A stretch of 35,453 nt of DNA from positions 1 through 35,453 of the forward strand of contig CAMOQV010000003.1 of assembly GCA_946623205.1 (NCBI GenBank), read 5' to 3'. Shown piece after piece: positions 348 through 35,453 of the stretch. A model generated the notes under the pieces. That model had not been told where the DNA came from. It searched no databases and saw only the letters and a program-made list of their open reading frames with translations. The position numbers and the translations under genes were made by a program. This stretch comes from an uncultured Clostridia bacterium (lineage in GTDB: Bacteria > Bacillota > Clostridia > Christensenellales > UBA3700). Within the stretch, counting starts at the first letter, position 1, and the number at the start of each line of letters is the position of its first letter.

Positions 348-361
348 ATCTAATCCTCCAT

Positions 362-378
362 ATACCCCCACCGGGTAT
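362..378. promoter_or_regulatory. Putative CsoR operator ATACCCCCACCGGGTAT
   Basis: ATACCC/GGGTAT inverted repeat with G/C-rich centre, resembling CsoR sites, directly upstream of csoR. Confidence 0.65.
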
Positions 379-382
379 TTAC

Positions 383-412
383 ATAATATGAAATTTATTT
401 CAAATTGTCAAC
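383..412 (-). promoter_or_regulatory. Putative csoR promoter: TTGACA (412..407), 18-nt spacer, TATTAT (388..383)
   Basis: Consensus-like hexamers; predicted start falls in the CsoR-like operator. Confidence 0.6.
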
Positions 413-419
413 ACTTTGC

Positions 420-448
420 TTGACATGATTTTCAACTTGTTTTACTAT
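420..448 (+). promoter_or_regulatory. Putative promoter of arsR-type regulator and P-type ATPase: TTGACA (420-425), 17 nt, TACTAT (443-448)
   Basis: Perfect -35, near-consensus -10, immediately followed by an inverted repeat. Confidence 0.65.
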
Positions 449-472
449 ATAGTTGAATAATTGCTCAACTAT
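449..472. promoter_or_regulatory. Putative ArsR/SmtB operator ATAGTTGAATAATTGCTCAACTAT
   Basis: Inverted repeat with perfect 8-bp outer arms (ATAGTTGA/TCAACTAT), 10 of 12 arm positions complementary; directly downstream of -10. Confidence 0.7.
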
Positions 473-484
473 TGGAGGGATGAT

Positions 485-841
485 ATGTCAAAGTACGAAT
501 GCGATTGTGAAATAATTCATGAAGATAAAGTGAATGAAGTTAAAGGCAAAATGTTTTCAGATGATGAATATTTAGATTTAAGTGATTTATTTAAAATGTT
601 TGCTGATTCAACTAGAGTTAGAATTATGCATGCGCTTGAAAAGAGCGAATTATGCGTATGTGATTTAGCAAATTTATTGAATATGACAAAATCTGCTATT
701 TCGCATCAATTACAATCTTTAAGATTAATGAATTTAGTTAAGTTTAGAAAAGAAGGGCAGGTTGTTTACTATTCATTAAAAGACGATCACGTTAAAACAC
801 TAATTGACATAGGCTTTGAACATATCAGCGAGGAGAAATAA
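485..841 (+). CDS. ArsR/SmtB-family metal-responsive repressor (CadC/CzrA-like)
   Basis: wHTH: LFKMFADSTRVRIMHALEKSELCVCDLANLLNMTKSAISHQLQSLRLMNLVKFRKEGQVVYYSL, including the ELCVCDL metal motif. Start moved from 461 (inside the operator) to ATG 485 with GGAGGG RBS at 474-479. Confidence 0.92.
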   Translation: MSKYECDCEIIHEDKVNEVKGKMFSDDEYLDLSDLFKMFADSTRVRIMHALEKSELCVCDLANLLNMTKSAISHQLQSLRLMNLVKFRKEGQVVYYSLKDDHVKTLIDIGFEHISEEK

Positions 842-15376: not shown

Positions 15377-15405
15377 TTGATAATATGCACGAAATAGAAT
15401 ATAAT
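15377..15405 (+). promoter_or_regulatory. Promoter: TTGATA (15377-15382), 17 nt, TATAAT (15400-15405)
   Basis: Near-consensus hexamers at optimal spacing; places the TSS downstream of the 15385 ORF start. Confidence 0.7.
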
Positions 15406-15432
15406 AATATGCGAATCAAAAAGGTTGGCGTC

Positions 15433-16113
15433 ATGAAAGTTTGCAAAAAATGTCAGAAAGAGTTTAACGATAATTTAACTTTTTGTCCGTTCTGTGGAGC
15501 AGAAAATGCGGATAAAAAATTGACATATTTTGAAAAGAAAACAGCTAAAGAGCAAGACAAAGAATTTATTATTTCAAAGGCATCAATCCAAGATGAAGAT
15601 GCAAAGAACGCTAAAGAGATCTCTGCGGATAATTTGACTGTTAAATTAGTTACACCGTTAAAGAAAGCAAAACTATTATCTATCTTGAAAATCGCATCAT
15701 CAGCAATCGCATTGGTAATGTTGTTAGTGATAGGCTTTTTAGTTGCAAATATGGACATAAACAAAAACATCAAATTATTCACGATAATGGGCGCATTTTT
15801 GCTTGTTGCAGTATGTGGTTCGTTGTTGATTTCAGAAATATATGTAATGCTTGCAATAAAGAAAATTGAGAGCGAAGATTTTTCATTAAGAAAAATCTAT
15901 TATATGCTTGGCCCAGTATTTTGTTATGGGAATAATGTATATGAAATAAATACAAATATGCAATGTGATGATTGCAATGAAAAGATGCATGTTGAGTTAA
16001 AAGATGATGACGTGTATTTAGTATGCAATAAAAACAGAGAGCATATATGCAAAATTACAAAAGATAACTATATCTTATACTTAAAAGACAAATTGAGTAT
16101 AAATAATAATTGA
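15433..16113 (+). CDS. Zinc-ribbon membrane protein of unknown function
   Basis: MKVCKKCQKEFNDNLTFCPFCGAEN zinc ribbon, two hydrophobic TM segments, then a C-terminal MQCDDCNEK...LVCNKNREHIC Cys cluster. Start refined from 15385 to 15433 with AAAAAGG RBS. Confidence 0.7.
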   Translation: MKVCKKCQKEFNDNLTFCPFCGAENADKKLTYFEKKTAKEQDKEFIISKASIQDEDAKNAKEISADNLTVKLVTPLKKAKLLSILKIASSAIALVMLLVIGFLVANMDINKNIKLFTIMGAFLLVAVCGSLLISEIYVMLAIKKIESEDFSLRKIYYMLGPVFCYGNNVYEINTNMQCDDCNEKMHVELKDDDVYLVCNKNREHICKITKDNYILYLKDKLSINNN

Positions 16114-16139: not shown

Positions 16140-16820
16140 ATGAAATTTTTAGTTATTGAAGACAATGTTACATTAAATCAAAACATTAGAGACGTTTTGC
16201 AAAAGTTAGGTGATAGCGATAGCGCGTTTGACGGAGAAGAAGGTCTATATATGGCTGAGCACGGATCATATGATTTAATCGTGCTAGATTTAATGCTTCC
16301 AAGACTAAATGGTTTAGAACTATTAACTAGATTGAGAAAAACTAGTGTTGCACCAGTTATTATCCTTACAGCTTTAGATAGCACCGACAAGAAGATTGAA
16401 GGCTTAAAATTAGGTGCAGATGACTATATGTCAAAGCCTTTTGAAAACGATGAATTGCTAGCAAGAGTTGAAGCAGTTTTGAGAAGATATAACAACAATT
16501 TCAATACTAAATATGTTTATAAAAATATCGAACTTGATTATATCGGAAAGATTTTAAAAATTGATGGCGAGTATGTTAAACTAGCTGGAAAAATGTACGA
16601 TATAGTTGAATATTTAATAAGAAATAGAAATATGATTATTTCTAAGGAACAATTATTCAATAGAATTTGGGGATATAATTCAGATACTATTGTTACAGTT
16701 ACAGAAGTATATGTAAGTAACCTTAGAAAGATTCTTGAAAAATATGACGCAAAGAAATACCTAAAGACAATTAAGAATATTGGGTATATGTGGAGCGACA
16801 AAGAAGATAATGAGAATTAA
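16140..16820 (+). CDS. OmpR-family response regulator
   Basis: Receiver domain (IEDN, DLIVLDLMLPRLNG, LTA, DDYMSKPF) and wHTH (VTVTEVYVSNLRKILEK). Confidence 0.95.
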   Translation: MKFLVIEDNVTLNQNIRDVLQKLGDSDSAFDGEEGLYMAEHGSYDLIVLDLMLPRLNGLELLTRLRKTSVAPVIILTALDSTDKKIEGLKLGADDYMSKPFENDELLARVEAVLRRYNNNFNTKYVYKNIELDYIGKILKIDGEYVKLAGKMYDIVEYLIRNRNMIISKEQLFNRIWGYNSDTIVTVTEVYVSNLRKILEKYDAKKYLKTIKNIGYMWSDKEDNEN

Positions 16821-18090
16821 CGATTTATACAGTCGTGCGGAAACAGAAAAGCAGTCAAGAAGATTGTTGGCGATTAGTATCATAGCGCCAACAATTTTGC
16901 TAATTATGGTTGTCGTAATGGCCGTATTTACAGCAACCAACGCGATTAAGGCAAAACAGACAAGACAACTAGATGTCATTTCTGAAACAGCCGCCGCAGG
17001 AAGATTGTGGGACCCAGATAAAAGTAGGCCACAAAACCTTGCCGCCGTTGGAAGTAAAATTTTCTATTATGATCAAAAAGATGCTGGCTACAAGCCAAAG
17101 TCGCCTGTCGATGAAGGGTTTGCTCAAGTATATGATGCAAGTTTAAATAATACACAAGTTGAAATAAATGGCGTAACTTATAAATGCAAAGCTGGCGATG
17201 TCGCTGGAAATAGTTATGGACTTTACAAATATATTGTGTATTTGGATATTCAAGAAGACATAAGGACCACGCAAACGTTTATATGGACGTCAGTTTTAAT
17301 ATTCGTAATGGCGTTTGTTATTTTGTTTGCTGTGACATATGCACTTGTTATGTTGCAGATGAAAGTGTACGAAAGATCTTTAAATAGAAACAATAGATTG
17401 ATTTCAGATATTTCTCATGAATTTAATACACCACTAGCCATTATTAAGTCGTCTATGGCTCAAGTTTTGGCGGATCCCGATGCAAAAATTGAAGATAAGT
17501 CAGAATCTCTTGTAACGGTTACTCATGAGGCGGGTAGATTGAGTAGAATGGTTAAAGATATGCTTGTTTTGTCTAGATCTGACAACGAAAGAATGATTAT
17601 TGAGAAAACTAACTGCGATATAACTGCAATTGTTAAAGAAGTTGTTGAGCCATTCCAAATGATGTGTGAGCTTAGCAATAAAGAAATGATATTGGAAATA
17701 GAAGAGGAAGTTAATAGTAGAACAGACGCGGATAAATTGCGTCAAGCTTTGATTATTTTATTGGATAATGCAACAAAGTATACAAAGGAAGGAGAATCTA
17801 TAACAGTAAGCCTATATACTACTTTCAGCAAATATATTCTTGAGGTTGCAGATACAGGCGATGGTGTTCCAGATAAGGATTTACAAAACATCTTTGAGAG
17901 ATTCTATAGAACGGATAAATCAAGAACTTCAGAGACTGGAGGATCAGGCCTTGGACTATCTATTGTGAAGGCAATCATGATTGCTTTGAAGGGAAAAGTA
18001 TATGCAATGCATAATGATCCAAAGGGATTGAGGATAGTTTTAGAGTTCCAAAAAGAAAAATTTACACAAAATTTACAAAGCGAGAAGTAG
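16810..18090 (+). CDS. Membrane sensor histidine kinase
   Basis: Two TM helices flanking a ~110-aa external domain, H box SDISHEFNTPLAII, N box LIILLDNATKYT, G boxes ADTGDGVPDKD and GGSGLGLSIV. Start refined to ATG 16810, overlapping the regulator stop. Confidence 0.93.
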   Translation: MRINDLYSRAETEKQSRRLLAISIIAPTILLIMVVVMAVFTATNAIKAKQTRQLDVISETAAAGRLWDPDKSRPQNLAAVGSKIFYYDQKDAGYKPKSPVDEGFAQVYDASLNNTQVEINGVTYKCKAGDVAGNSYGLYKYIVYLDIQEDIRTTQTFIWTSVLIFVMAFVILFAVTYALVMLQMKVYERSLNRNNRLISDISHEFNTPLAIIKSSMAQVLADPDAKIEDKSESLVTVTHEAGRLSRMVKDMLVLSRSDNERMIIEKTNCDITAIVKEVVEPFQMMCELSNKEMILEIEEEVNSRTDADKLRQALIILLDNATKYTKEGESITVSLYTTFSKYILEVADTGDGVPDKDLQNIFERFYRTDKSRTSETGGSGLGLSIVKAIMIALKGKVYAMHNDPKGLRIVLEFQKEKFTQNLQSEK

Positions 18091-18298: not shown

Positions 18299-21200
18299 AT
18301 GAGAAGTATTAAAGTGATTTTATCAATTTTGTTAGTGCTAATGTTGTTGTCGACAATGTTAATTGCACTTTATGGATGTCAAGGGGATCCAAATAATGAA
18401 AAGCCAGTAGATCCACCTACACCAACACCTACACCAACACCTACACCACCACCAGATATAGATCCAGATCCAGTCGATCCAGTCGATCCAGTTGATCCAA
18501 TTGATCCTGTAGATCCTAGCACAACAAAGAAAGTTGTTAAGAAAATTGACCAATTCTTATGCTTTGCTGAATTGTTAGGTGGTACAAAAACTCCACAAAG
18601 CGCAGGGGAATACAAAGTCCTAAGCATTTATTTTGATATTAACACTCGTGATGCAGGTTCTTCAGATGAGTTTACAAAGAAGAGACTTGTATTTAGAACA
18701 AATGTAAGCATTAAGAGAGAAAAAATTACATTCAAAGATGAATATGAGTTTAGAAATTATATAAATGGTGCTGAATTGTATATTTCACCATCTGAAGGTA
18801 AATATACTAAGTCAACAGGATATAAAGAGAATACACAATATTACTATAAGACAAAGGGAACTACATATGTAGGAATTTCTTTTGATACAGAAGAAGAGTA
18901 TGATGCATTTATGATAGGTGGCCATACAGTTTATGCTTTCAATGCAAATGATGGCACATACACAAAAGCTACAACATTCAACAAGAATACAGAATATTTC
19001 AAAGTAACAACAGGTGGCGATGATAGCCAATATGTTGTTAAGATGTTTGATTTAACAGAAGCTTCAAAAGATGAAAATTTAAGCGAAGCAGGTGAAGATG
19101 ATAATGCAAACGTAATATCTTTTGGTAACGATGAAGGATATTTATCTATTGGAACTGCTACAACAGAAGAAGAATTAGAAGAACAATTGATTTTTGAAGA
19201 CAAGGGTGAATTGATTTGGGCTCTTTATACAGTTAATGGCAAAATGTTCTTGGACAAAGGCGAAGATAAAGAATTACTTTATTTTGAAGACTTTGACATG
19301 GATTATGTAAATGCAATCGCAAAGAATTTATTAGATTCTCTATCTGATGGCAAATATGATGGAAGTTTGAATGGTCCATTATTTGCAATGATTGATGATA
19401 TGATTGGTGGAGCAATTACTATTAATGGTATTTTAGGTCTTTTAAAATCATTCATATTCCCAACAAAAGCAACAAAGACAACGATTACAGAAGGAAAGAC
19501 TGTTACTTCTACATACGAATTAGAAATTGGTATTAATTCATTGATTGCACAATTACAAAAATTAGTATCAACTGTTATGTCGTTGCCATTTATTGATTTG
19601 CCATTTGATTTACAAGTAGACCCATTAATCAGCTTCTTGAAAGACATTACGCCTAAGATGAAAGTTTATTTAGTAGGTGAAATCGTAGACGGAAAAACTA
19701 CTACTTTTGGATTGAAGGTTCTAGATAATGATGAAGCAAACAAAGGAACAACTTATAAAGAAACAATTTTGAATTTTGATATTTCAAATTCAACAGTATA
19801 TAGAGTTACTCCAGCTAATTTAGATATTCCAGAAAGAGTTATGAAAGCTCAATATGATGAAACATTCAGTTTAACAAATTTAGCTTTCTCTTTAGATATT
19901 GTATTAAATAGTAATGGAAATCTAGATGTAGGTGCAGTATTAAATGGCATTCTTGGTAAAGAATTATTACCAGCCGAAACAATTATTGTAAATGCAGCAA
20001 CAGGCTTTAGATTAGATTTGGCCTTAGATGCAGATTTAAATTATGGAAAATTGGAGGATGAATCAGAAGTTATCGAATATGTTGACGAATTAGGTCAAAA
20101 GAGATATAAGCATCCTTTATTAGATAATAATTTCTTGGTTCTTGAATTATACCTAATTGGTGTAGATATTGATCCAAAAACACAACAACATATATTAATA
20201 GATGAAGAAGCATTAATAGGTATCTATTATAAAGATGGTTCTATTTATGCTAATTTAGGACATTTATTAGAAAGATATTACAGCGGTAGTAACCTTAAGG
20301 TTAATATCGAAGGTATCCCAGAAGTTATCCAATACGTAGTGGATTTAGTATCTAACGCTTTAGATGGTGTATTTGCAAAGACTCTAAAGTGGGGCGATTG
20401 GAGAACTTGGAGCGATCTATGGAATTATAAATATGGCACAAGTGAAGATGCACCATTGTCTTCAGCAGAACCAGCAGATAGCACAGATAATGAAGACCCA
20501 ATTTTAGATCCAAACGACGTAGTAGTAGGTATTCAAGGATCAGAAAGTGGATACAAGGTATCTACAAATCTAATTACCTTCTTGAAGGCTGTAGGTGCTG
20601 TAGTTGGTCTTGGAGATATCTTCTCATCAAATGATGAACAAACAGCAATTGTTATTACAGTTAATACTGTTTTATTTAATGGTATTAAAGCATTAGCTTC
20701 TGATTTGGATTTAAATTTACCAGATGGTTTAATTGCTGAATTAAGCATTAACTTTGACGAAGAAGGTTCAATTCGTTCAATTGCAATTGCCGCTGCAGTA
20801 GATAGCAGAGTAGGATTTAAGGATGAAAATGGTGAATGGTATATTGGTAATAAAATATTATATAATCCATTATTATTTACTATAGATGGTATTAAATATT
20901 ATGAAGATCCAAACTTTGATCCTGAAGATACAGAAACTATTCCAAACTTTGACACAGACGATGAAGAAAGAGATTTTACAGAAGAAAAACCAAAATCTAG
21001 CTTCTCAATTGTATATGTAAGAGATAATGTAGCAGGAGCTACAGGTAGAAGATATTATTTGGATAGAGCAGCAGACGATGATGATTTTGCATATCTTGGC
21101 TATATGGCTAATGGTAAACCAGTTATCTATGATGATTCTTCTAAGATTGATTCTGGAATTAAAGAATATTATGATAAGGCAAAGAATTTATACTATATAA

Positions 21201-24200
21201 CAAAAGGCGACAAAACAATCGAAACTAAGTTCCAACCAAGCACATACATTTACAAGGGCGAATGGGTTGTTGGATATGGTTTAGAAGCTGGCACAGGTGA
21301 AACAAAGGGCACTAAGAAAATAGATGGTGTTGATTATTCAATTCTAACAGATGCTAAATATTTCACTTTCGAAACACAAGTATTAGCTCAAGGATTAGAA
21401 GCTGAAATCGTGCTTCATGACTTTATGTTGTTATATGAAGCAGGATATCTAAATAAATTTGACGGATATAAAGGACACTATGGCGCAACTAAGGCTATCG
21501 AAGGTTACATCCTAGATAAGACACATACAGTTGCTGAAGTGTCTGCAGATGTATTAAAGAAAGGAGGCGACTTCCTTCTAAAAGATCCAGCATCAGGAGA
21601 TTATTTCCCAGTAACATTAGAAAAAGATGAATATGATCCAGCATTAGGAGAATTCTTCACTTTAGAAGAAAGAACATATGTAGATTCTATTTCTAAGTTC
21701 ATTGATTCTCTATTAACAAGAGGTACATTCTTCAGTTTGAATCTTGCAATAGACTTTAGTGCAGGTAAGTATGACTTAGCTCCGCTAATTTCTCTATTCT
21801 TACCAGAAATGAAAGGTAAACACTTGATTTGGGAATTCACAGGAGACTTCCAACTAGATGCATCTTTGAATTTAGGTGTTTTATTAAATCAAGCAGATCC
21901 AGAACAAAGCAAATTAGTTTTGGAACTTGTAGCAAACAAAGATATTAAGATTGGAGATAATATTCTATTCGCTGGTGGTTCTACAATTCTAGGCCTATAT
22001 GGTGATGGTACAAAGGTTTATGCTGAATTAGAAAATATTAAGTTATTAAATATTGTATTGCCAAACTTAGCTGCAAATATTGACTATACAACAGTATTGT
22101 ATAAGTTAATTGGAGATAAAGAAATCTTTGATTTGACATTCAATATTATGGATTTAATCAATGGAGATAATGAAGATGAAGGTGCTTCAAATTCAGAAGA
22201 AGTTGCACTTGCTCCAGAAGATCCACAAGACCCAGAAGATCCTCAAGATCAAAACGTTGCAGCAACACCACTACCACTAACAAGTTTAGCTGATGCATTA
22301 ACTCTATTTATTGATAAAAATATTGTAGAAGTTACAATTACCATTGCTGGTATTCAAAAGTTGCTTGCTTCATTTGGCGTTGATTTAGGCATTGCATTAA
22401 CTGATATTATGCAATTAGCTGTTGATCTAAAACTAGATAGAAATAAGGGCGTATTTTTAGATATAACAGGCGCTTTAATGCCAAAGTACGATGAGGAACT
22501 AAGTGAAAATAATGGAAACTACTTCGACGATGACTTAAGAATCGCATTAAGATTAGCAACAGGTTATGACTTTGAATATGTATTAGATGAAAATGGCCAT
22601 AAGACATATGATAAATATGGTAAAGCTATTAAGAACAAGGTTAGAAATTCAGATGCTTACGCTCCAGTAGAAATTGGTAACGTAGAAGAATTATTAGCAA
22701 ATTATGAAACTAAGTTCTTAGCTTTAGAGAGCCAAACAGATAAATATCATGACGATTTAATCCAAGCTATCCTACAAGTTATTGGTGATTTGAAATTATC
22801 TATTAAGATTAAGGCTAGCGTATTAAATAGTATATGGGATATTAATAAGATTATTGATACAATCGTTGCAGACAGAGGAGATAGATTTGCTCTTCCAATT
22901 AAGGTATTATTCGACGATTGGGATACAGAAGTTGAACTTTTAGTTCAATGGTACCTAGATTTGAACAACTTTAAGAATACTCAAATCAAGATTGAAATTA
23001 GATATGAAGACCATGTTTGGATTGGTTTATATGTATATAAGAACAGCTTAGTTCTTGACTTAAATGGTTTAGGTTTGTTTGACATTGAAGTTACTAACTT
23101 AAAAGTTATTGCAAGCTTAGGTAACGTAATTCAAACACTTACATCTTCAATCGCAGATTTGTCATTAACAAACTTACTTGGTGGATTAATTGATGGATTG
23201 TTCGAAGAAAACAACGAAGAAGGACAATCAAATGTCGAAGAAGAAACATCTGCAACAGAAGGTGAACAAGCACAAGCAGATGAAGATCAAGCACAAGCAG
23301 ATAGTGATACATCTAATGCAGGTTTGGCTATAGAGAACGATTCTGAAGCTTCAAATGAATTAATTTCTATGTTATTAAATGCTGTATCAATTCAAGATAC
23401 AGAATTATCTGCACACATTACAGCAGACGTATTTGAAGCAATCTTTAGAGAATTAGTTGGATTCAGCATGTACCTAGAATTTGATGTTGGTGCAAAGTTA
23501 GACATCAAAGAAGGTAGATTAACTGTTGATGTTGGAGTTGAACGTGCTGTTAACGCAAATATCACACTTCAATTATCTGCAGGTGAAAGAGGTGCTCATA
23601 AGTTTGATTTAGACTTAGATAGCATTCCAAACTTAAATGCTTTAACAGGTGAAGATCTAGTTAAGACATTATTAAAGAATCTTGATATTGGCTTATATGT
23701 AGATTTGGATCAATATACATCTACATCAGGACAAGCTATTTATACAAGAATTTATATTGAAAAATTAAATGCAAGAAAGAGATTAACAGATAAGGCCATT
23801 GCTCAAAAGGGTTCTATCTTAGTTACATTAGCAGATATCGATTTAGCAGAATTCAACAATGCTGGTTCTGGTAATGTTACTCCACTTGTATATGTTGAAT
23901 TAGACTATACAGCAGGAAAGATGAACTTAACATTTGGTTCAAATCTTCTTGTAGCAAATGTAATTGGTATTAAGATTGATATTGGATCATTAATCGGTAC
24001 AATTGGTATTGATTTAGATTTAGTAAATATGTTAGGCCCAACATTAGATGGTTTATTAGACACAATTTCAGGTCTAGTAGAAGGTTTAATGGGCAACAAC
24101 AATGTTGCAGATTCAAGCGAAAGTGGAGATGAAGATGCTACTCCACCAGCTCCAGTTGTTCCAACACAAGAGTTAGGCGAAGCTGTTGACATTATTGAAA

Positions 24201-27200
24201 TTGTCTCAGACGAAGAATGGGGTAAAGATGGAAATGTAAGAGCTAAATCAAACGGCAAATACATTAACGAAGGAAAGTATTACTTACATGGCGGTAATTT
24301 GTATATCTTAGATTCTTCAGATGAAACAGGTCCACTTGTTCAATTGAAAGGTATTGACATTGATAGCGAAGCCAGATTGCCAGAACTTGTTCAAGATGGT
24401 TACGGAAAGGATGATCCAACTAAAAATTATTCTCGTTCTTACTGTAAATTAACAGTTGATGGTGTAACAACATACTACATCTGTAAAGCTGGTACAGGTT
24501 TAGATAGAAGAAATTATAAGTGGCATGCAGGTAATACAGTAAATGCTTTATCTGGATTCTTCTCAAGCTTAGATATCTTAAGTTTATTCGAAGAATTAAC
24601 ATTATATCTATCTTGTGATAAAGAATCTCAAGTTGGCGTATTAAATGCAGATGTTACTGTAAATGTATATCAATTGAATTCAATTATTGACCATTTGATG
24701 TACTACATTTTAGGACCAGAAACAATTCTAAATCTAAAAGAATTGACGGCAGAAAATGCAGAAAAAGGTGAAGGTATTTACTTCAATGCTAACTATTTAT
24801 CTAAAGTACATTGGAATAGACAAGATCAAAATGCGCTATTAAATGAACTATGGGAAGTAATTACAAGCGACCAAAGTTTTCCTGATGGTAACCATAACTT
24901 CTTAAGTGACATTCTAAATGCTGTTGGATATGGTGCGTTAAGCGGACTTGTTGGTATGGTTAAGGGCGCTATTAAAGATTCATTCGATGGAATTATTAAG
25001 AAGTTAATCCCATTTGCAGTAACAAACGAATCTCATTTAGGTTTAAATATTGTACGTGGACAATTAACAAGTATTTATTTAACAAATGATGATAAGAATG
25101 AAAACATCTTTGATGAATATGGCAATTCTTACACATTCTATAATGGAAGCAAAGTTGTTAAGTATTACAATGATGCAAACAATAACGGAGTATGGGACGA
25201 AGGTGAAACAGGTGGAAGAAGTGATAATTACTTCACAAACCTACATATCTTCAATACATCAGCATCAGTAGGTGATGCACAATATACAGGTGTAGATGGT
25301 GCTATTACATGGGATAATACTCCAGCAACAATTACATATAACCCATATATGTATGAATCTCATGCTAAAGCTGCAGAACAATTATACAATTCATATTTTG
25401 GAACAGGCCATATAGCTACATTCCAAAGAGCTACAGAATTGTATAAGGCTGAGATGACATTCAAGTTTATTGATGTAAATGGAAATGTAATATCTACTAT
25501 TTCAAGCAAGAATGATATAGCTGCTAAGTTAGAAACACCAGGTACATATTATATTCAAGCTTCAGCTGCATTCAAGAATGGTGCTGAAACAAGAACATTA
25601 AGAATTAAGTTCGTAGTTCAAGGCGGTGAAGGCGTTGATAACATTACAGATATCGATACTCAAAAGATGTTCGTATATCAAGCAATGCCAGCATACATCT
25701 TTATCTATACAGGAAGTGGTGTAAGAAGAATTGAAACAACAAATCTACAATTTGCTTTTGCAGATGAAGATGGCAATGCTCCAGCAGCAAGTTCAGATGC
25801 TTGGGTATTAGGTACAACACCTACACCAACAAAGATTAGAGATGATTCAGAAGGAAGCAATGGAGATTGGGATCAAGATGTTTATATCAAATTCCCTAAT
25901 GGAACAATATCTCCAGTTCCAATGACTATACATTATAAAGATTCTACAATCGATGAAATCATTATTGCAGATGAAAATGGTGAAAATAGATTAAAAGATA
26001 ACACATGGACAGTTAACTTATATGAGTTCAACACAGAAGATACTCTAGAGAACTTTATGCCTGCTAAACTTTACTTTAAATATAGCGATGGCACAGCTAC
26101 TCAAATGCCAGTAACATGGACAAATACAGAAGAAGCTGCAAAGTTATTTGATAGAGTAAAGTATGGTTCTTCAGAATATAGTAAGGTAACAGAAGCTACA
26201 TATACTTTAACTGCAAACATTGGTACAGGTAATTTGAAGCAATCTAAGGACATAACATTCTATGTCCCAGCAAGAGAAGTATCTAGCGTTTCTGTTGGTA
26301 ATAGAACAAATCTATTGAATATTCAACCATATGAATATTATCTATATCTAATAGATAGCACTAAATATGCTAAATATAACCCATACCAAGATCAAATCAT
26401 GGTAAATTACAAGACATTCTCAGAAAATGTTTATGTAAAGTGGGCAGAAGAAGATGCAAGCAAGGTTGATTACAGCTGGGGCGAAAATATCGAAACAAAA
26501 GCAAAAGATCGTTCATTTGTAAGAAAAGTTTATCTAAATGGCGATAAGTATCCATCAGGCGATATCTTCCACTGGGATCAAGATGTTACAGTAAACATTA
26601 CTAGAAACCAAATTCAAGGCATCTACTTCGATGAAAAGTGTACACAAACAACAATCGTAGTTGATCCATATGTTTACTATAATACTGTAGATAAGTTTGA
26701 ATACTTTAGACAAAAGTACTCTGAAGCATATGTTAAGTTCACAAACGGCTATGTATTAAAGATGCCAATTGCGTTCGATAAAGATGAAATCCTTGCAATG
26801 AATGTAGATTACGAGACAAATTATGCTCAATTTACAATCGCAATAGGATTTGATGTTGCTAAGTACTATGCTTACACAACAGCTCTAAATTACAAAGCTG
26901 GCGAAACATATTACAAAGCTACATTAAGAGATGATGTTACAGCAGATAATTTCGCAACTATTACTAGAAGCGAACAATTATATGTAATAAATGATGGAAT
27001 GTATGTAAAGGCTTCTAAATATGATAAAGATGCTCAATATTATACAATTGTTGTTGATGATACAATTACATCACAAGCTACATTCAATGCTGCATCTAAT
27101 GTATTAACAACAGGTGCTTTGGATGTATTTACAGATGTTTATAACAGTAAATATTACCAAGAATATGCAATTAACGTAAAAGTTAATGCAGTAGCAATTA

Positions 27201-28906
27201 AGAGCATTGATCATGATAGAAAGAATGATATGTATCCAGGCTATTTAGTAATCGATCCAATTAAGGTAGATATTCTAAAGTCTGAAACAGCATTCCCAAG
27301 CAAGGTTAATGTTGTATACATAAACAATACAACTGCAGAAATGGATGTTGTTAAGTGGGAAGTCGAAACAGCAGAAGATGTATGGGAAGTAGTTGATTTA
27401 TCTACATACACCGTACCTCTAAACAACACATTTGGTCGTGTAAGATGCTATATCACTCAAAATCTAACACCATTTGTTTTAGACTATGTTGTATTAGAAA
27501 GAGATGGTATCTTAATGACACCAAATACTGAAGATATTAAAAATGCAGTAGTTGATCCATATGATTACGAAGTAAATGCAAATGGCGCAATTACATATGA
27601 TGTATTTGCTTCTGTACTAGACGTTGAATATATCGTAGGTTACTCAGTTAAACTTCTAGACTTAGGTGAAGACGGAATCGAAGGAAAGAGCGCTTCTGGC
27701 AAGGTAGATGATAAGACTATTATCAACAAGGTAGTGCCTCTAGAATCAGACGTTAGAGCTATTAAGAGAGATATGAAGAGTGAATATACATACGATAAAG
27801 AATCAGGTTTGTATATGAAGGAAATTGAAGGCGTATTGCATTCATTCAAATTGACAGTTAAAGAACAAACTTTGAATTATACATTACCAGTTACATGGGA
27901 TTTATCTGTTAATTTATCTACTTCAGGTGCAAAAGAATTAATCAGCTTCTATTTTGGTGAAGATGATTACAAGATTACAAAGCAAGTTGAAGTTACATTT
28001 GCAAATAAGACTCTAGAGTATGTTGCTAAGGAAGATGGTTATATCTTTGAAGCATATGTTGCTCCAGAAACATTAAAGACTGTAACAATTTCTCAAAAAG
28101 AGTTGAACTCTACAAAGGCAACAAGAAGTATGAAAGTTGGCTTCACAGATGGTACAACAAGAGAAATGGATGTAGTTTTGGATCTTCAAACAATTAAGAA
28201 GGGAGACAATGTTGTAGGCACATCTGCATTCAAGAATCCAACAGTTTATAACTATCAAGAAACAACAGTAGCAGCAGCAATCGATACATACTATGTTCTT
28301 GGTAGATATACAGAATTGAACTTAAGAGGAAATGGTATTGGATATGTTCAATATGAATATAAAGAAATCGCATTTGAATCTTTAGATATTGGTGAAACAT
28401 ATTACTATATCACAAAGGATGGATATCAAGAAGTTGTGGTAGCAGCAGAAAAGGCAAATGTAAATGCTCAAACTCAATACTATAGACGTTATGATGTTAA
28501 GTATTATACATTTGAAGAAGTTTCTGGAACTGTAGGAACATACAGTGAAGAAACAACTACAACATACTATATAAAGAGTGATGATTCTTACATCCCAGTT
28601 CAAGTTTCTAATGGCTATAAATTTGGTAATATGACATATTACACAAGAAAAGATGCTGTAGATGTAAGCGCATCAACAAAAGGTACATTCTATACATATA
28701 GCGAGGATGCTTCAAATAGACACGACTATGTTGCTGTTGAATCTTTGAATACATCATCTCCAAAATATAATGCAAAGGAAGGTTATAAGTATTATATGTT
28801 AAGTATTACTAACGACTATACGGTTACTGCATATATTGGTGCAGAGAACCCTGCATTAAAACAAAGTATCGAAATTAAGATACACATTTTCGCAGAGGAG
28901 GTATAA
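18299..28906 (+). CDS. Giant (3535 aa) putative lipoprotein: Pro-rich stalk, tandem amphipathic beta-rich modules, Ig-like (Big_4-type) repeats
   Basis: Uninterrupted 10.6-kb ORF; signal peptide and lipobox-like LIALYGC; stalk PTPTPTPTPPPDIDPDPVDPVDPVDPIDPVDP; acidic linkers between similar modules; repeated (V/F)xYxxGTxxxMPVxW patterns. Confidence 0.85.
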   Translation: MRSIKVILSILLVLMLLSTMLIALYGCQGDPNNEKPVDPPTPTPTPTPTPPPDIDPDPVDPVDPVDPIDPVDPSTTKKVVKKIDQFLCFAELLGGTKTPQSAGEYKVLSIYFDINTRDAGSSDEFTKKRLVFRTNVSIKREKITFKDEYEFRNYINGAELYISPSEGKYTKSTGYKENTQYYYKTKGTTYVGISFDTEEEYDAFMIGGHTVYAFNANDGTYTKATTFNKNTEYFKVTTGGDDSQYVVKMFDLTEASKDENLSEAGEDDNANVISFGNDEGYLSIGTATTEEELEEQLIFEDKGELIWALYTVNGKMFLDKGEDKELLYFEDFDMDYVNAIAKNLLDSLSDGKYDGSLNGPLFAMIDDMIGGAITINGILGLLKSFIFPTKATKTTITEGKTVTSTYELEIGINSLIAQLQKLVSTVMSLPFIDLPFDLQVDPLISFLKDITPKMKVYLVGEIVDGKTTTFGLKVLDNDEANKGTTYKETILNFDISNSTVYRVTPANLDIPERVMKAQYDETFSLTNLAFSLDIVLNSNGNLDVGAVLNGILGKELLPAETIIVNAATGFRLDLALDADLNYGKLEDESEVIEYVDELGQKRYKHPLLDNNFLVLELYLIGVDIDPKTQQHILIDEEALIGIYYKDGSIYANLGHLLERYYSGSNLKVNIEGIPEVIQYVVDLVSNALDGVFAKTLKWGDWRTWSDLWNYKYGTSEDAPLSSAEPADSTDNEDPILDPNDVVVGIQGSESGYKVSTNLITFLKAVGAVVGLGDIFSSNDEQTAIVITVNTVLFNGIKALASDLDLNLPDGLIAELSINFDEEGSIRSIAIAAAVDSRVGFKDENGEWYIGNKILYNPLLFTIDGIKYYEDPNFDPEDTETIPNFDTDDEERDFTEEKPKSSFSIVYVRDNVAGATGRRYYLDRAADDDDFAYLGYMANGKPVIYDDSSKIDSGIKEYYDKAKNLYYITKGDKTIETKFQPSTYIYKGEWVVGYGLEAGTGETKGTKKIDGVDYSILTDAKYFTFETQVLAQGLEAEIVLHDFMLLYEAGYLNKFDGYKGHYGATKAIEGYILDKTHTVAEVSADVLKKGGDFLLKDPASGDYFPVTLEKDEYDPALGEFFTLEERTYVDSISKFIDSLLTRGTFFSLNLAIDFSAGKYDLAPLISLFLPEMKGKHLIWEFTGDFQLDASLNLGVLLNQADPEQSKLVLELVANKDIKIGDNILFAGGSTILGLYGDGTKVYAELENIKLLNIVLPNLAANIDYTTVLYKLIGDKEIFDLTFNIMDLINGDNEDEGASNSEEVALAPEDPQDPEDPQDQNVAATPLPLTSLADALTLFIDKNIVEVTITIAGIQKLLASFGVDLGIALTDIMQLAVDLKLDRNKGVFLDITGALMPKYDEELSENNGNYFDDDLRIALRLATGYDFEYVLDENGHKTYDKYGKAIKNKVRNSDAYAPVEIGNVEELLANYETKFLALESQTDKYHDDLIQAILQVIGDLKLSIKIKASVLNSIWDINKIIDTIVADRGDRFALPIKVLFDDWDTEVELLVQWYLDLNNFKNTQIKIEIRYEDHVWIGLYVYKNSLVLDLNGLGLFDIEVTNLKVIASLGNVIQTLTSSIADLSLTNLLGGLIDGLFEENNEEGQSNVEEETSATEGEQAQADEDQAQADSDTSNAGLAIENDSEASNELISMLLNAVSIQDTELSAHITADVFEAIFRELVGFSMYLEFDVGAKLDIKEGRLTVDVGVERAVNANITLQLSAGERGAHKFDLDLDSIPNLNALTGEDLVKTLLKNLDIGLYVDLDQYTSTSGQAIYTRIYIEKLNARKRLTDKAIAQKGSILVTLADIDLAEFNNAGSGNVTPLVYVELDYTAGKMNLTFGSNLLVANVIGIKIDIGSLIGTIGIDLDLVNMLGPTLDGLLDTISGLVEGLMGNNNVADSSESGDEDATPPAPVVPTQELGEAVDIIEIVSDEEWGKDGNVRAKSNGKYINEGKYYLHGGNLYILDSSDETGPLVQLKGIDIDSEARLPELVQDGYGKDDPTKNYSRSYCKLTVDGVTTYYICKAGTGLDRRNYKWHAGNTVNALSGFFSSLDILSLFEELTLYLSCDKESQVGVLNADVTVNVYQLNSIIDHLMYYILGPETILNLKELTAENAEKGEGIYFNANYLSKVHWNRQDQNALLNELWEVITSDQSFPDGNHNFLSDILNAVGYGALSGLVGMVKGAIKDSFDGIIKKLIPFAVTNESHLGLNIVRGQLTSIYLTNDDKNENIFDEYGNSYTFYNGSKVVKYYNDANNNGVWDEGETGGRSDNYFTNLHIFNTSASVGDAQYTGVDGAITWDNTPATITYNPYMYESHAKAAEQLYNSYFGTGHIATFQRATELYKAEMTFKFIDVNGNVISTISSKNDIAAKLETPGTYYIQASAAFKNGAETRTLRIKFVVQGGEGVDNITDIDTQKMFVYQAMPAYIFIYTGSGVRRIETTNLQFAFADEDGNAPAASSDAWVLGTTPTPTKIRDDSEGSNGDWDQDVYIKFPNGTISPVPMTIHYKDSTIDEIIIADENGENRLKDNTWTVNLYEFNTEDTLENFMPAKLYFKYSDGTATQMPVTWTNTEEAAKLFDRVKYGSSEYSKVTEATYTLTANIGTGNLKQSKDITFYVPAREVSSVSVGNRTNLLNIQPYEYYLYLIDSTKYAKYNPYQDQIMVNYKTFSENVYVKWAEEDASKVDYSWGENIETKAKDRSFVRKVYLNGDKYPSGDIFHWDQDVTVNITRNQIQGIYFDEKCTQTTIVVDPYVYYNTVDKFEYFRQKYSEAYVKFTNGYVLKMPIAFDKDEILAMNVDYETNYAQFTIAIGFDVAKYYAYTTALNYKAGETYYKATLRDDVTADNFATITRSEQLYVINDGMYVKASKYDKDAQYYTIVVDDTITSQATFNAASNVLTTGALDVFTDVYNSKYYQEYAINVKVNAVAIKSIDHDRKNDMYPGYLVIDPIKVDILKSETAFPSKVNVVYINNTTAEMDVVKWEVETAEDVWEVVDLSTYTVPLNNTFGRVRCYITQNLTPFVLDYVVLERDGILMTPNTEDIKNAVVDPYDYEVNANGAITYDVFASVLDVEYIVGYSVKLLDLGEDGIEGKSASGKVDDKTIINKVVPLESDVRAIKRDMKSEYTYDKESGLYMKEIEGVLHSFKLTVKEQTLNYTLPVTWDLSVNLSTSGAKELISFYFGEDDYKITKQVEVTFANKTLEYVAKEDGYIFEAYVAPETLKTVTISQKELNSTKATRSMKVGFTDGTTREMDVVLDLQTIKKGDNVVGTSAFKNPTVYNYQETTVAAAIDTYYVLGRYTELNLRGNGIGYVQYEYKEIAFESLDIGETYYYITKDGYQEVVVAAEKANVNAQTQYYRRYDVKYYTFEEVSGTVGTYSEETTTTYYIKSDDSYIPVQVSNGYKFGNMTYYTRKDAVDVSASTKGTFYTYSEDASNRHDYVAVESLNTSSPKYNAKEGYKYYMLSITNDYTVTAYIGAENPALKQSIEIKIHIFAEEV
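18413..18517 (+). repeat. In-frame short tandem repeats encoding TPTP and DPVDP stalk
   Basis: 12-bp ccaacacctaca units followed by 9-bp gatccagtc-type units. Confidence 0.85.
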
Positions 28907-28908
28907 AG

Positions 28909-31900
28909 ATGAATAACGCTAAATCTTTAAAAACTCTATATTTAATAGGAATTGTAAGTTTAATAGTTGTTTTAATGTTAGGACTAACTCTTAACACACT
29001 ATATAACAATGAAGTATCAGTTGAAGCAAAAGCTGAAACTATTGCTGCAACTGTAGAATCTAAATTTGGTTCAATATACAATGAAGAAGGAAGTGCATAT
29101 CATAAGTCAAGCGAGCAATTAACAGCAGAATATGGATCTTATGTAGAGATTAATTCATATGCTACATTAAGCTCTTTCTTAAATGCATCTAATTCAGCTG
29201 GAACTGTTGGCGTTTTAGTTAACAATATTGATTTTGTATTAGCAAACGAATCTAACGCTCAATTTGCAGGTACATTGGATGGTAACGGATATAAAATAAC
29301 AATCACTGCCACAGGAATTACAATGACGAATTTCTTCCAACATAACTATTTCAAAGGTGATGTGGATTATTGCTACGCAGGAATGTTAGTTGGTGTTAAC
29401 CGTGGAAGAATTAAAAATTTAAAAATTGATTGGAATGGTAGTTTAAATGTAAATGCTACAAATTCAAACGGTGGTGTTATTAAAACTCCAGACACGAATA
29501 GGCCATTTGTAACAGGTATCGTTTGCGGATTAAACGCTGAAGGCGCTGTAATAGACAATCTAGAATTAAATATCAATGGCGCATTTGCTGTTGGAAAGGG
29601 CTCAGGATCATCAGAGACAGACGTTAGAGGACAATCTGCAATAGCAGGTGGTGTATGTGGCGCTCTATATAAAGGAACAATTTCACATTGTACAGTTAAC
29701 AACAATGGTGGCGTATTGAGCGTGGCAGATGGTTCAACATCTGGAACTGGATGTAAATCTGGTTCATCTGCAGCAGGTGGATTTGTAGGCACTATTTATC
29801 CATCTTCAGATTCAAAATTAAAAACTTGTATTTTAACAGGAAATGGTCCAGTTAGAGCTATTAGTTATAATGATACAAAGAATAGAAACAATGATGGTTT
29901 CTGGGGCTTTGCAGGCGGTGCCGTTGGCGCAAGTTTAACAGTTGTTATGAATGGTACAGTTAACGAAGTAAAAGGTGTCCAAGTCTATTTGTTGCAAGAT
30001 GGCCAAATTGATGGATTGATTTCGTCATGGACTGGATATACTGAGCATTATTGGAAGAATCAAGACACGAAAGATAGAGATGACTTTAATCAAGTAGATT
30101 TCGCACAATGGGGTAACCAATCTGGTGCATCTGTTTGGGCATCAACTCACCAAGGTGCATTATTCGGAATCGTAGATCCTACAGCTAGTGCTTCAGATTC
30201 ATATTCATCATTACTTGATGTAATAGTAACATACGAATTTAATGCAGTTGTTGGAGCACAAGATGACACAGGTGGAAAATATATCGACAATAACTCTCAC
30301 GTTACTACAGGCGCATGGAATGAAGTATATTCATTAAACAATGGTGGTAGCGTAAAAGTTGGATATGATAAAAATTCTAAGCCAAGAATAATTGCTTCTG
30401 CAGATGATTATGATTTAGAAGATGTTGATAGTCTAGACAAAGATAAGCTATATGACAAAGTTTCTAGTGGCAAAATTATTTGGTCTTCAAACTTCATGTA
30501 TTATGCAGATGTAAAAGATGATGAAGGAAACGTTATAGGACAAGAAAAGAAATATTATGAGAATTTAATTCCAACACAAGAAGTTCCAGCAGAAGTAAGA
30601 TATTTTGCTTCAGGAGAAGGTCATGTATATGAATATACATTTGGTGAAATTGTTAATGTTAGCTTTGTAAATAATAATACAACGGATAATGTAAGTCTTG
30701 CATTAACAGAATATAGTAAGTTGTTTGACAAGGGCTTATTCCATATGCCATCAACAATAATTAAAGATTCAGATAATCAAGTTGCAGATGGCTTACATGC
30801 TTCATTAGAAACATTATATTTTGTTAGAGGAAGAGAAGCTGCAATAGATTTAAGTGAACATAGCAATATAGCAAGTTTATTATATTTACCAGGCGATTAT
30901 GAATTCGCTTGCAAACAAATCGTTAATAACCAAAGATTTGCATATTACGACGAAACAAATCACTATATTGCAAATTACAATGAAGATTTACATAAATTCT
31001 ATTATAGTGTATTAGAAGATAATGGAACATTATTAAATGTTTCATCTGAAAGTACATCATTACACTGGAAGACGGATGTTGATACGATAACATTTAATTA
31101 TGGCAACAAAGCAAATATTATCGATTACTATACTGTAACAAAAGGAAGCAATGCTAATCCATATATTAAGAAGAACATGCCAACTGATTCTGTATCTGAA
31201 TCTATAGTAATTTCAGAATCTGGTAATTTCTTCTATACAGTAGGTGCATATATTGTTAACCCATTATTAGATACTAAATACTTTACACAACAAGAAATTG
31301 ATTCAGGCATTTATAACTATTTACAAATCGGCAAGTCAAGTGTTCAAGTATTTGTAGATAACAAAGGACCAGAAATTACAAACATTAAGTATTATGAATA
31401 CGATGAAGATAATGAAGAAGATTTCTATAAAGGTGAAGAAATTAAAATCTTCAATAAAGATGAATGGCAAGATACAGACATCGTTATCACTTATGATGTT
31501 GTAGAAAAGTGGAACACAATAAACATTGGTAGTGGCCATGCAAAAGTAGATGATTCAAACGATAAGAAGTGGCAATGTTCATTAATCTTGACAGAAAAGA
31601 ATCCAGTAGCAACCGTTAAGTATTCAGATACATGGGATAATGTAACTATATATGTGTTTGAATCAAAGATTGATACAACAAATATGGATTTAAATGATGT
31701 TCAAGTATTGAACGAGAAAGAATATCTTCGTTATGAAGGTCAAATGGATTATTCTCCAGTTGCATTGATTATTTCATTCACTCCAGTATTTGGCGCTTCT
31801 GGTGCACATTTGTATTATTCACATGAAGAAGTTGATGGTGAATCAGTTTGGGTTGAATCAGAACAAGAATTAAAGTCTAATCAACCAAACAAATTTATTG

Positions 31901-34900
31901 TTGATTATGAATTAATCAATCAACCAATTAGATTAAAGTTGGTAAATGATAATGGCATTCACAGCGAAATTCTAGCAAAGAATGGAGAATATAGCGACGG
32001 TTATATTAGACACCAAGCTGACGATATCGACGAAGATGTAAAAGAAGCTAAAGCAAAAGCATGGAACATCAGAGTTGTAGTTGCTGCTATGGGTATTACA
32101 TATGATAACATCTTCTATAAAAATGCAAATGAAGAAGAATTTACATATGATGCGGCTCATTCATTAAAAACATTGCTTTCAACAGAAGAAGGAAAAGCAA
32201 CATTCAAAGGATGGGTTGATAGAGCTTATGATGGTACAAATAAAGCTTATGTTGATTTACGTGCAAAGGTTTACACAAGCGGAACAACGTTGATGTCAAA
32301 TACAATTTTGTATTATTCACAATTCTATCAATATTCAGAACCAGCAATTGAAGAAAGTATGTTAGATGTTCAATTAACATTCGATTCAAAAGATGCTGGA
32401 ACACGTAACTTGTTTATTAAAGTTTCAGGAAAAGATGAATATCTAAGCAGATATGAATTCAGATTCTTAGAAAGCGGTCAACAACCTGAAGAATATGCTG
32501 AATTGATTGGCGAAGAATATGCAAATCAAGAAAATAAGCAAATGGATGGTCAATATACTATTTCTCCATATGAATTAACGGGATATTTAGATGCAGCATT
32601 TGGCGCTGGTGATTTGTCTTATGTTTTCGGTCAAGATATCTTAACACAAATTATTATTGCCGGTGTTGGTGATGATGAAATCATATTAGATTTAACAAGT
32701 TCAGCTGTTAAGACTCATGATGACGAAAAGGATATTGATATTTATCCATCAGCTGGATCATATAGCTTAAGCAATGCTGTTATTTCTGATGATAATGGTG
32801 ATAATAAAGCATCATTTATGAATAACTATGAAGTTATAGCAGAAACTAAGCCATTTGAAATTATACCAAAGAATGTAATTGTTAATGCTTTATTAGATGG
32901 TAAAGATACATATGCAACAACAATATTATTTGATGGCAAAAACCATTATGTAGGTGGAACATATGTAGATATCTATGGGGATTATCAAAATATTAAGGTT
33001 ACATATTATAAATATAATGCTCAAAATGATTCTTGGATTGAGGCTGAAGAAGAACTTGATGGCGGAGTTAAGCAAGCTGGTAGATATAAGGCTTTATTAT
33101 CTTCTAGCGATCCAAATTACGCAGTTGCAAATACTGGTAAAGAAATTAAGTTCATTATTCAATATGGTGCATTACCTTTTGATCAAAGTGAACAAATAAA
33201 GACATTCAATGGGGAGGCACAAGCATTCAGTATTATTACAGATATAGATTTAGCTACATATGAAGCCCCAATGGTAATTGATTATTATAGATTGAATTCT
33301 GAAGGCATTCCAGGCACAGAAAAAGTTACTCCATTTGAGGTAGGTAGATATTTGGTATTAATCGAAGTAAGTGGTAGTGATTATTTCTATAGCCAAAAAT
33401 ATGACAACATGTATTTAACAATACAAAAGGCAGATACTGAATTAACAGTTACACAAGAAATACCTGTTGTTTACGATGGAAATGCTCATACATTCAGTTT
33501 AGAAGAGTTGGATTTAGTTGTTAAAGCTGATAACGGAAATACTCAAGTAATCGTTGTAAAAGATGGCGAAGATGGCTCAAAGTATATTGAGTACACGACA
33601 TTTGATGGCAGTGAAAAAGTTACTAAGCCATATTCAGAAGTAATTGAAATTACAACAGTAGTTAATAGAAAGAAAATTGTTTTAACTGAAGCTAACTGGA
33701 ATGAATATGCACAATTTATAGCTGCTGGAGAGCATGAATATACTATTAGATTTAAGGGTGATAGTTGTTATGCAAGCACTGAAACAGTTTATAAATTCGA
33801 TATTCAATTAGCAAAATTCGATGGAATTGAATTTAACGATGCTAAATTCTATTTCACAACAAAAGATACTTATCATTCAATTTATATTGAAGATAACGAA
33901 GCGTTTGCAAATTATCTTGATATGGGCGCAGTTGTAACATATTCATATACAGGTGAAGAATATAAAGATGCAAACGACCATGTTGTAAACGCTGAAACTG
34001 AGTTTGAATATAGAAAAGATACAGATAAAGAGACAAATGAAATTAAATTCAGCGAATTTGGCGAATATAGTGTTATGGCAACAATTACATTGGATAACTA
34101 TATTACAGAAAGTTATACTGCTATATTAACTATTGATAAAACAGCATTACCAAAGCTTGAGCCTGTAGCAATGGGAGAAATTGCATACGATGGTATGATT
34201 CATCCAGGTGAATTTAAGTTTGTAGATGAAAACATTACAATTAAGCCAACATATGTAAAAGGACAAGAAGCAGCAAGATTAATAGATTACTTCATGATGA
34301 TTTTAGATAAAGAACATCCTGAAGATGCTGTAAGAGTAGATGTTACTTATTCTAAGGACGCTCGTCCAGTAAATGCAGGCACATACAATGGTATTATTAC
34401 ATTATCTAGTGCAAATTATGCAGATACAGATGTAAAGGTAAGAATCGTAATTAAAGAATATGAAGCTGTAGTAAGTTTTGATTCAATTAGAAGCATTATT
34501 GCATCAATTGACGATTCAACAGATTTATCTAAATTACATCCAACATTTGAGTTTATGGGAGAAACATATTCAGCTAACTATGAATACTATGATGCAAATG
34601 GTCATAAAGTTAACTTGAATTCTGATGGTACATTGGATGCAGGAACTTACACAGTAAAAGTTTCTTTTGATAATGGAAACTTCACAACAAGTCAAACTGC
34701 AACATTAAATATTGAAGAATCAGGAAATAAAGGTGGCGGACCAGGAGAAGGTGGCGGCAGCTTTATGGAAATATTTAAAAAATATATGCTATGGTTCATT
34801 ATAGGCAGTGTTGTTATAGTTCTTGGTGTAGTTGGCGGAATAGTTGGCGGAGTGATAAGCAAAAAGAAGAAAGGCGAAAGAAGAAAGCCAACAAATAAAA

Positions 34901-35023: not shown

Positions 35024-35453
35024 ATGAAAAATAATAGAACAACTAACAAAATATTAATTAGCATACTAGTTATCTTCTTTGTTGCAATGCTTGGTTATTG
35101 CGTTGTGGCTTTCAACAATGTTGAAGAAATAAATACAGTTTATGCTGATCAAGCTGGTATAAATGGAACTGTAATTGAAAATTACAGCACTAGTTATACT
35201 AGTGGAGCGGATTTATCTAATGCTACAGCGCTTAATAATTGGCTAAATGGTACAGGCACTGAGGGCACCAAAGCCGATGCATATTTAAGCGATGACATTA
35301 CTTTAAATTTGACAAGCACAACAAGCACAGCAATATTAGATGGTAAGCGTTTAGATGGCTGTGGTAAGACCATTACAATTAATGTTACGACTTCTAATTA
35401 TGCTTATTCATGGGTAACAACACGTGAAGCAACAGACACAGAAGATGGACTGA
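35024..35453 (+). CDS. N-terminal part of a third exported surface protein, similar in layout to the 2032-aa protein; runs off the window
   Basis: AAGGAGGT RBS at 35008-35015; ATG 35024 opens MKNNRTTNKILISILVIFFVAMLGYCVVAFNNVEEINTVYADQAGINGTV...ATALNNWLNG...ILDGKRLDGCGKTITINV; open to the last base. Missing from the ORF track, presumably because it has no stop in the window. Confidence 0.8.
   Translation, partial: MKNNRTTNKILISILVIFFVAMLGYCVVAFNNVEEINTVYADQAGINGTVIENYSTSYTSGADLSNATALNNWLNGTGTEGTKADAYLSDDITLNLTSTTSTAILDGKRLDGCGKTITINVTTSNYAYSWVTTREATDTEDGL

What the first reader, a model, noticed from the sequence alone, without database searches (positions are those of the whole stretch)
18299..28906. 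3535-aa lipoprotein with an apparently undescribed multi-module architecture
After the lipobox and stalk, the first ~2000 aa contain about four or five similar long modules: a hydrophobic helix, amphipathic strands such as TAIVITVNTVLFNGIKAL..LIAELSINFDEEGSI or AHITADVFEAIFRELV..LEFDVGAKLDIKEGRL, and an IGLYxxDGxVYAxLxxI-type end. Strongly acidic linkers (about 20437-20514, 22163-22270, 23203-23358, 24091-24171) separate them. I do not recognise this module as a named family; its alternating hydrophobic strands could form a groove or elongated beta structure. The last ~1000 aa carry Ig-like repeats.
Basis: partly seen in the sequence, partly recalled or inferred. Interest (0 to 1): 0.75.

Follow-up and report, generated by a model that had tools for sequence, protein, structure and literature searches.

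The report
Giant surface lipoprotein with undescribed module
This gene encodes a very large lipid-anchored surface protein of a Clostridia bacterium, built from tandem copies of a roughly 300-residue module that matches no known family and that was found only within this bacterial order, where related proteins reach 13,588 residues.

Summary
The ORF (18299-28906, 3535 aa) is real and conserved. It carries a near-canonical lipobox, a Pro-rich stalk, three clear copies plus one divergent copy of a ~300-aa helix-plus-amphipathic-strand module, a single-copy C-cap domain, and a weakly Big_4-like tail. The module has no match in Pfam, NCBIfam or PDB sequences, nor to small DUF6612, LolA and DUF2140/TULIP profiles. 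It occurs in 83 of 297 sampled genomes of the order (6 families, 24 genera); a 392-genome class sample gave only two hits, both in that order. Related ORFs reach 13,588 aa. In the window's family the lipoprotein lies directly upstream of a second giant surface protein (38 of 40 loci; the other two end at contig ends), in half the loci behind a response regulator and/or histidine kinase. AlphaFold models are poor (mean pLDDT 51 and 56) and Foldseek gives no significant hit, so the proposed groove is unproven. Most likely role: a membrane-anchored, wall-spanning adhesive or ligand-capturing fibre working with its partner. A hydrophobic-ligand or lipid-binding array is the main rival.

The parts
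18299..18379 (+). signal peptide and lipobox (LIALYGC, Cys27)
   Evidence: sequence directly; lipobox pattern in 44 of 50 proteins screened; Tyr at -2 is atypical
18380..18538 (+). Pro/Asp-rich stalk (PTPTPTP...DPVDPVDP)
   Evidence: sequence directly
18539..19165 (+). N-terminal region before module A, variable in relatives
   Evidence: residues 84-137 align only in the closest relatives
19196..20434 (+). module A (residues 300-712), first copy of the ~300-aa module
   Evidence: hhalign vs M3 E 6e-4 against controls; 52-copy profile 19373-20452 E 1.2e-44
20531..22198 (+). module 2 (residues 745-1300), interrupted by an insertion
   Evidence: C-half vs M3: 96%, E 9e-9; 52-copy profile 21218-22213 E 1.1e-57
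20924..21553 (+). insertion inside module 2 (residues ~876-1085); begins in the most acidic stretch of the protein
   Evidence: mostly absent outside the closest relatives in alignment A3; D+E 50% at residues 869-896
22226..23218 (+). module 3 (residues 1310-1640), best-scoring copy
   Evidence: 52-copy profile 22181-23242 E 2.8e-62; alignment A1
23351..24103 (+). module 4 (residues 1685-1935), divergent copy
   Evidence: hhalign vs M3 E 0.007; iterated profile hits module 3 at 7.9e-16 (copies may have merged in iteration)
24176..25108 (+). C-cap domain (residues 1960-2270), not a repeat of the module
   Evidence: no similarity to modules; one copy in 37 of 39 family proteins
25121..28903 (+). 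C-terminal region with Ig-like (Big_4-type) similarity
   Evidence: Big_4 21.1 bits here, 34.0 bits in orthologue L034
28909..35007 (+). second giant surface protein (2032 aa): signal peptide, MBG-like domain, C-terminal TM helix and basic tail; starts 2 bases after the lipoprotein stop
   Evidence: large same-strand ORF directly downstream in 38 of 40 relative loci
35024..35453 (+). third secreted protein, cut by the contig end
   Evidence: a third secreted ORF also follows in L033
16140..16820 (+). response regulator (Response_reg + Trans_reg_C) conserved upstream
   Evidence: homologs 52-95% identical upstream of the lipoprotein in 18 relative loci
16780..18090 (+). sensor histidine kinase conserved upstream
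   Evidence: homologs directly upstream in 14 relative loci

Best explanation
The protein is a small member of an undescribed family of giant surface lipoproteins confined, as far as sampled, to one order of Clostridia. SHOWN: secretion signal with lipobox; tandem copies of a ~300-aa module (3 + 1 divergent here, 12-13 in 7,100-7,400-aa relatives, 6-8 near-full copies in relatives of 9,100-13,600 aa); a single-copy C-cap and then a weakly Ig-like tail; a second giant surface protein gene directly downstream; a response regulator/histidine kinase pair upstream. INFERRED: the diacyl-Cys anchors the N-terminus to the outer face of the cell membrane, the modules act as rigid spacers that carry the chain through the wall, and the C-cap and Ig-like tail present a binding surface outside, together with the membrane-anchored partner. 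The most likely role is a regulated adhesive or ligand-capturing fibre, with module number setting its length.
For: Lipobox across the family. Regular ~300-aa tandem period with copy number varying from 3 to 13 by near-full profile hits. C-cap once per protein in nearly all family members, at the same place after the array. Ig-like Big_4 similarity of the tail. Partner with signal peptide, sub-threshold MBG_3 match and C-terminal TM plus basic tail; a large same-strand ORF directly downstream in 38 of 40 loci, the other two ending at contig ends; the pairing also occurs in another family (9,117 + 5,991 aa). The response regulator is 95% identical to that of relative L031 while the lipoprotein is about 58-60% identical, as expected of conserved control over a fast-changing surface protein. 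Precedent: very large extracellular proteins of Apilactobacillus kunkeei (abstract of PMC12863079).
Against: No known adhesin domain was found in the modules. Big_4 and MBG_3 matches in the window are below Pfam's cut-offs. Three megaproteins of family f24 (G266, G103, G187) have no giant partner beside them, so the partner is not universal. No ligand, expression or localisation data exist. The reach of the chain through the wall is assumed, not measured.
Confidence: 0.45

Rival explanations
1. Hydrophobic-ligand array: each module is a curved sheet with a hydrophobic face covered by helices (LolA/LppX-like or TULIP-like in shape), and the tandem array binds or passes lipids or lipid-linked compounds between membrane and surface.
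For: Strong alternation of hydrophobic residues in long strands across 193 copies. Predicted helix-strand order in the better-modelled halves. The Foldseek list for residues 1301-2275 includes TULIP P47 (E 2.5e-3, probability 0.15), LolA-fold proteins (RseB, LolA NE2245) and LppX (TM-score 0.41 by target length, E 1.0). LolA-fold proteins share a pocket for hydrophobic ligands (PMC6363788).
Against: No Foldseek hit reaches E 0.001 and the models average pLDDT 51 and 56. Profile comparison with DUF6612 (4 sequences), LolA (1 sequence) and DUF2140 (5 sequences) is at or near control level, but those profiles are thin. Alternating strands are also what any sheet packed against helices shows.
Confidence: 0.3
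2. Cell-envelope assembly or surface-layer scaffold: lipoprotein and partner form a structural lattice or stalk with no specific external ligand.
For: Very large, repeat-built, clade-specific and widespread in the family; partner anchored in the same membrane.
Against: Several divergent paralogues per genome in some genera and an adjacent two-component system suggest a conditional rather than constitutive structural role.
Confidence: 0.15
3. The modules are enzymes acting on extracellular polymers.
For: Size and surface location only.
Against: No enzyme family match; the residues conserved across copies are mainly Gly, Leu, Asp and Pro, without an obvious catalytic set.
Confidence: 0.04

Closest known systems
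Giant extracellular proteins of Apilactobacillus kunkeei (Giant1-5, PMC12863079)
   Different: no sequence comparison was made here; unrelated host lineage; only the abstract was seen
LolA/LppX/LprG/RseB fold superfamily
   Same: secreted, some of them lipoproteins; antiparallel sheet with helices; weak structural resemblance of the low-confidence model
   Different: known members are single domains, not tandem arrays; no detectable profile homology here
Bacterial TULIP proteins (YceB, DUF2140, DUF2993, P47)
   Same: helix plus long amphipathic strands; P47 is the best, non-significant Foldseek hit
   Different: no profile homology to DUF2140; known bacterial TULIPs hold one or two domains, not 3-13 tandem copies
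Big_4 / MBG domain surface proteins
   Same: Ig-like similarity of the lipoprotein tail and MBG-like similarity of the partner
   Different: these concern only the tail and the partner; the module arrays match neither

Membership tests
Bacterial lipoprotein (general) | N-terminal signal peptide with lipobox cysteine | tested here: met
   Cys27 in LYGC, atypical Tyr at -2 so the strict pattern misses the window; pattern present in 44 of 50 family proteins screened
Any Pfam or NCBIfam domain family (module) | match above the curated cut-off | tested here: not met
   no credible match to the module in 26 + 16 + 52 sequences with Pfam or in the window protein with Pfam and NCBIfam
LolA-fold superfamily | profile homology to LolA or DUF6612 | tested here: not met
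   hhalign probability 0.4%, like reversed controls; thin profiles of 1 and 4 sequences
LolA-fold superfamily | strongly curved antiparallel sheet with hydrophobic pocket | tested here: inconclusive
   models at mean pLDDT 51 and 56; LppX TM-score 0.41, E 1.0
LppX_LprAFG (PF07161) | family model match | tested here: inconclusive
   no hit in 11 genomes, but none of the control genomes rang either; Pfam scans of the module gave no such match
TULIP superfamily | profile homology to DUF2140 | tested here: not met
   hhalign probability 0.2-1.4%
TULIP superfamily | long helix wrapped by a curved sheet forming a lipid tube | tested here: inconclusive
   P47 E 2.5e-3, probability 0.15, TM-score 0.11 by target
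Big_4 Ig-like domain (tail) | match above Pfam cut-off 22.1 bits | tested here: inconclusive
   21.1 bits in the window, 34.0 in orthologue L034, 20.5 in L041
LPXTG/sortase-anchored surface protein (partner) | C-terminal sorting signal | not tested
   the partner ends in a TM helix and a long basic tail on reading; no dedicated scan was run

The most novel reading that the evidence does not exclude
The module is a new fold-level family whose tandem arrays form a continuous hydrophobic groove, making these proteins conduits for lipids or lipid-linked ligands across the wall of a Gram-positive cell, in chains of up to 13,588 aa, with array length as the evolving variable.
Probability: 0.12. Interest if true: 0.85.

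Novelty: new variant of a known kind. Interest (0 to 1): 0.6.

Why it matters
It defines an unlisted protein module that is widespread in one order of mostly uncultured, small-genome bacteria and that builds very large bacterial proteins. A recurrent cassette (two-component system, giant lipoprotein, giant membrane-anchored partner) gives a concrete handle for asking what such bacteria touch or take up at their surface. If the modules bind lipids, it would be an unusual way to carry hydrophobic compounds across a Gram-positive wall.

Tried and rejected
Self-BLAST of the protein was uninformative. Iterated HMMs can merge copies by construction, so orthologue-only profiles with shuffled and reversed controls were used for the homology claim. 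AlphaFold on two ~1,000-aa spans with 16 sequences each gave low confidence; single modules cut at the linkers would have been a better use of the two jobs. Foldseek on these whole low-confidence chains gave no significant match, and its top-50 list is treated only as a lead. Tests of LppX, DUF6612, LolA and DUF2140 membership found no homology, but with thin profiles; the PF07161 genome search was uninformative because its controls were silent. The window genome was not available as a file, and two calls failed on frame or size limits. Promoter scan upstream of the gene was at chance level. Literature searches on giant proteins in this order returned nothing on this family, within the open-access library only.

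Full report
WHAT IS THERE. The ORF at 18299-28906 encodes 3535 aa. It begins with a signal peptide ending in LIALYGC, a lipobox with an atypical Tyr at -2, followed by a Pro/Asp-rich stalk. Of 50 proteins screened, 44 match a lipobox pattern; the six without are the window itself (on the strict pattern), four frames cut at the end of the fetched stretch, and one downstream partner caught in the set. The gene is conserved: in the first relatives search 34 of 59 genomes match, namely the window's own, 32 of 34 other same-family genomes, and one of 24 same-order genomes, the last matching only about the first 85 residues.

THE MODULE. Direct BLAST between the presumed modules finds nothing convincing. 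Profiles built only from orthologous regions and compared by hhalign show that the C-half of module 2 (residues 1070-1300) and module 3 (1310-1640) are homologous (96%, E 9e-9), with A (300-712) vs module 3 at E 6e-4, A vs module 2 C-half at E 0.02, and module 3 vs module 4 (1685-1935) at E 0.007. Column-shuffled and reversed controls for these pairs stay at 2% probability or below. The region 1960-2270 does not resemble the modules. In relatives with regular arrays the copies are evenly spaced, for example 305, 292, 318, 307, 286 and 285 aa in a 3390-aa protein. A 52-copy profile recovers three copies in the window (the window's copies are among the 52). Apart from its orthologue (66%), the copies are 13-28% identical to module 3 of the window, so the duplications look old. 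The 193-copy alignment shows long strands with hydrophobic/polar alternation beyond block-shuffled controls (50 windows vs mean 9, maximum 44 in 1000).

WHAT IT IS NOT. No Pfam, NCBIfam or PDB sequence family is matched credibly. Profile comparisons with DUF6612, LolA and DUF2140 (a Gram-positive TULIP family, PMC6791001) are at or near control level, with the caveat that those alignments held 4, 1 and 5 sequences. AlphaFold2 of residues 290-1300 and 1301-2275 with 16-sequence alignments gave mean pLDDT 55.9 and 50.6; some module C-halves reach 10-residue means of 75-87. Foldseek against PDB gave no hit at E 0.001; the second list contains P47, RseB, a LolA protein and LppX among many unrelated proteins. 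This is a lead towards a LolA- or TULIP-like shape, not evidence of it.

DISTRIBUTION AND SIZE. A 26-sequence core profile and the 52-copy module profile find the module in 46 and 83 of 297 sampled genomes of the order, in families f1, f3, f7, f13, f16 and f24. In a class-wide sample of 392 genomes the only two matches were the window's genome and one same-order genome. The fifteen loci with public titles are labelled Christensenella, Christensenellaceae, Clostridiales or Clostridia, nearly all as metagenome-assembled genomes. Outside the window's family the matches lie in very large frames: 13,588, 11,335, 9,404 and 9,117 aa for the four read in full, each starting with a lipobox. These four show 6 to 8 near-full copies of the module C-half at E below 1e-3, and the 7,100- and 7,400-aa members of the window's own family show 12 and 13; weaker hits suggest more.

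GENE NEIGHBOURHOOD. The second giant gene (28909-35007, 2032 aa) starts two bases after the lipoprotein stop. It has a signal peptide, a sub-threshold MBG_3 match and a C-terminal TM segment with a basic tail. A large same-strand ORF follows the lipoprotein in 38 of 40 fetched loci, and in the remaining two the contig ends. Only seven of these partners match the window's partner in sequence, so the pairing is mainly positional. A 9,117-aa lipoprotein in family f7 also has such a partner (5,991 aa), but three megaproteins of family f24 do not. Upstream, a response regulator and/or histidine kinase homologous to the window's is found in 20 of the 40 loci, mostly those of the shorter orthologues; paralogous loci have other neighbours. 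A third secreted gene begins at 35024 and is cut by the contig end.

HOW IT PROBABLY WORKS. From the anatomy: membrane anchor, spacer array of variable length, single C-cap, weakly Ig-like tail, membrane-anchored partner, adjacent two-component system. The reading I favour is a regulated surface fibre that reaches through the wall to adhere or capture a ligand (confidence 0.45). Every step after the sequence features is inference. A hydrophobic-ligand array is the main rival (0.30); a structural scaffold (0.15) and enzymes (0.04) follow.

VERDICT. The count is corrected to three plus one, the fifth block is a C-cap, and the larger finding is an order-restricted family of giant lipoproteins with a positional partner. 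Fold and function remain open.

Noticed in passing
L106-L109 (G266), L110-L112 (G103), L113-L116 (G187), L120-L122 (G040): Single open frames of 13,588, 11,335, 9,404 and 9,117 aa with a lipobox and module copies, in other families of the order.
   Followed up: partly
window 35024-35453: Start of a third secreted protein directly after the partner gene, running off the contig; its N-terminus weakly resembles the partner's (E 0.07).
   Followed up: partly
window 16140-16820 vs 18299-28906: The upstream response regulator is 95% identical to its counterpart in relative L031 while the lipoprotein is about 58-60% identical, a marked contrast in rate.
   Followed up: no
window 15385-16113: Zn-ribbon-like protein of 242 aa upstream of the regulator, with homologs in the same place in L031 and L032.
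   Followed up: no
window 39-3354: CsoR-type repressor, ArsR-family regulator and an HMA-domain P-type ATPase: an ordinary metal-export cluster.
   Followed up: no
alignment A5, member not identified: One of the 52 module stretches also carries Listeria-Bacteroides (Flg_new) repeats (E 4.4e-36), a known surface-protein repeat.
   Followed up: no
L061, L062, L065, L066, L067: Upstream of the lipoprotein pair lies the end of another large TM-anchored protein with a basic NEKK/NEEK-type C-terminus.
   Followed up: no
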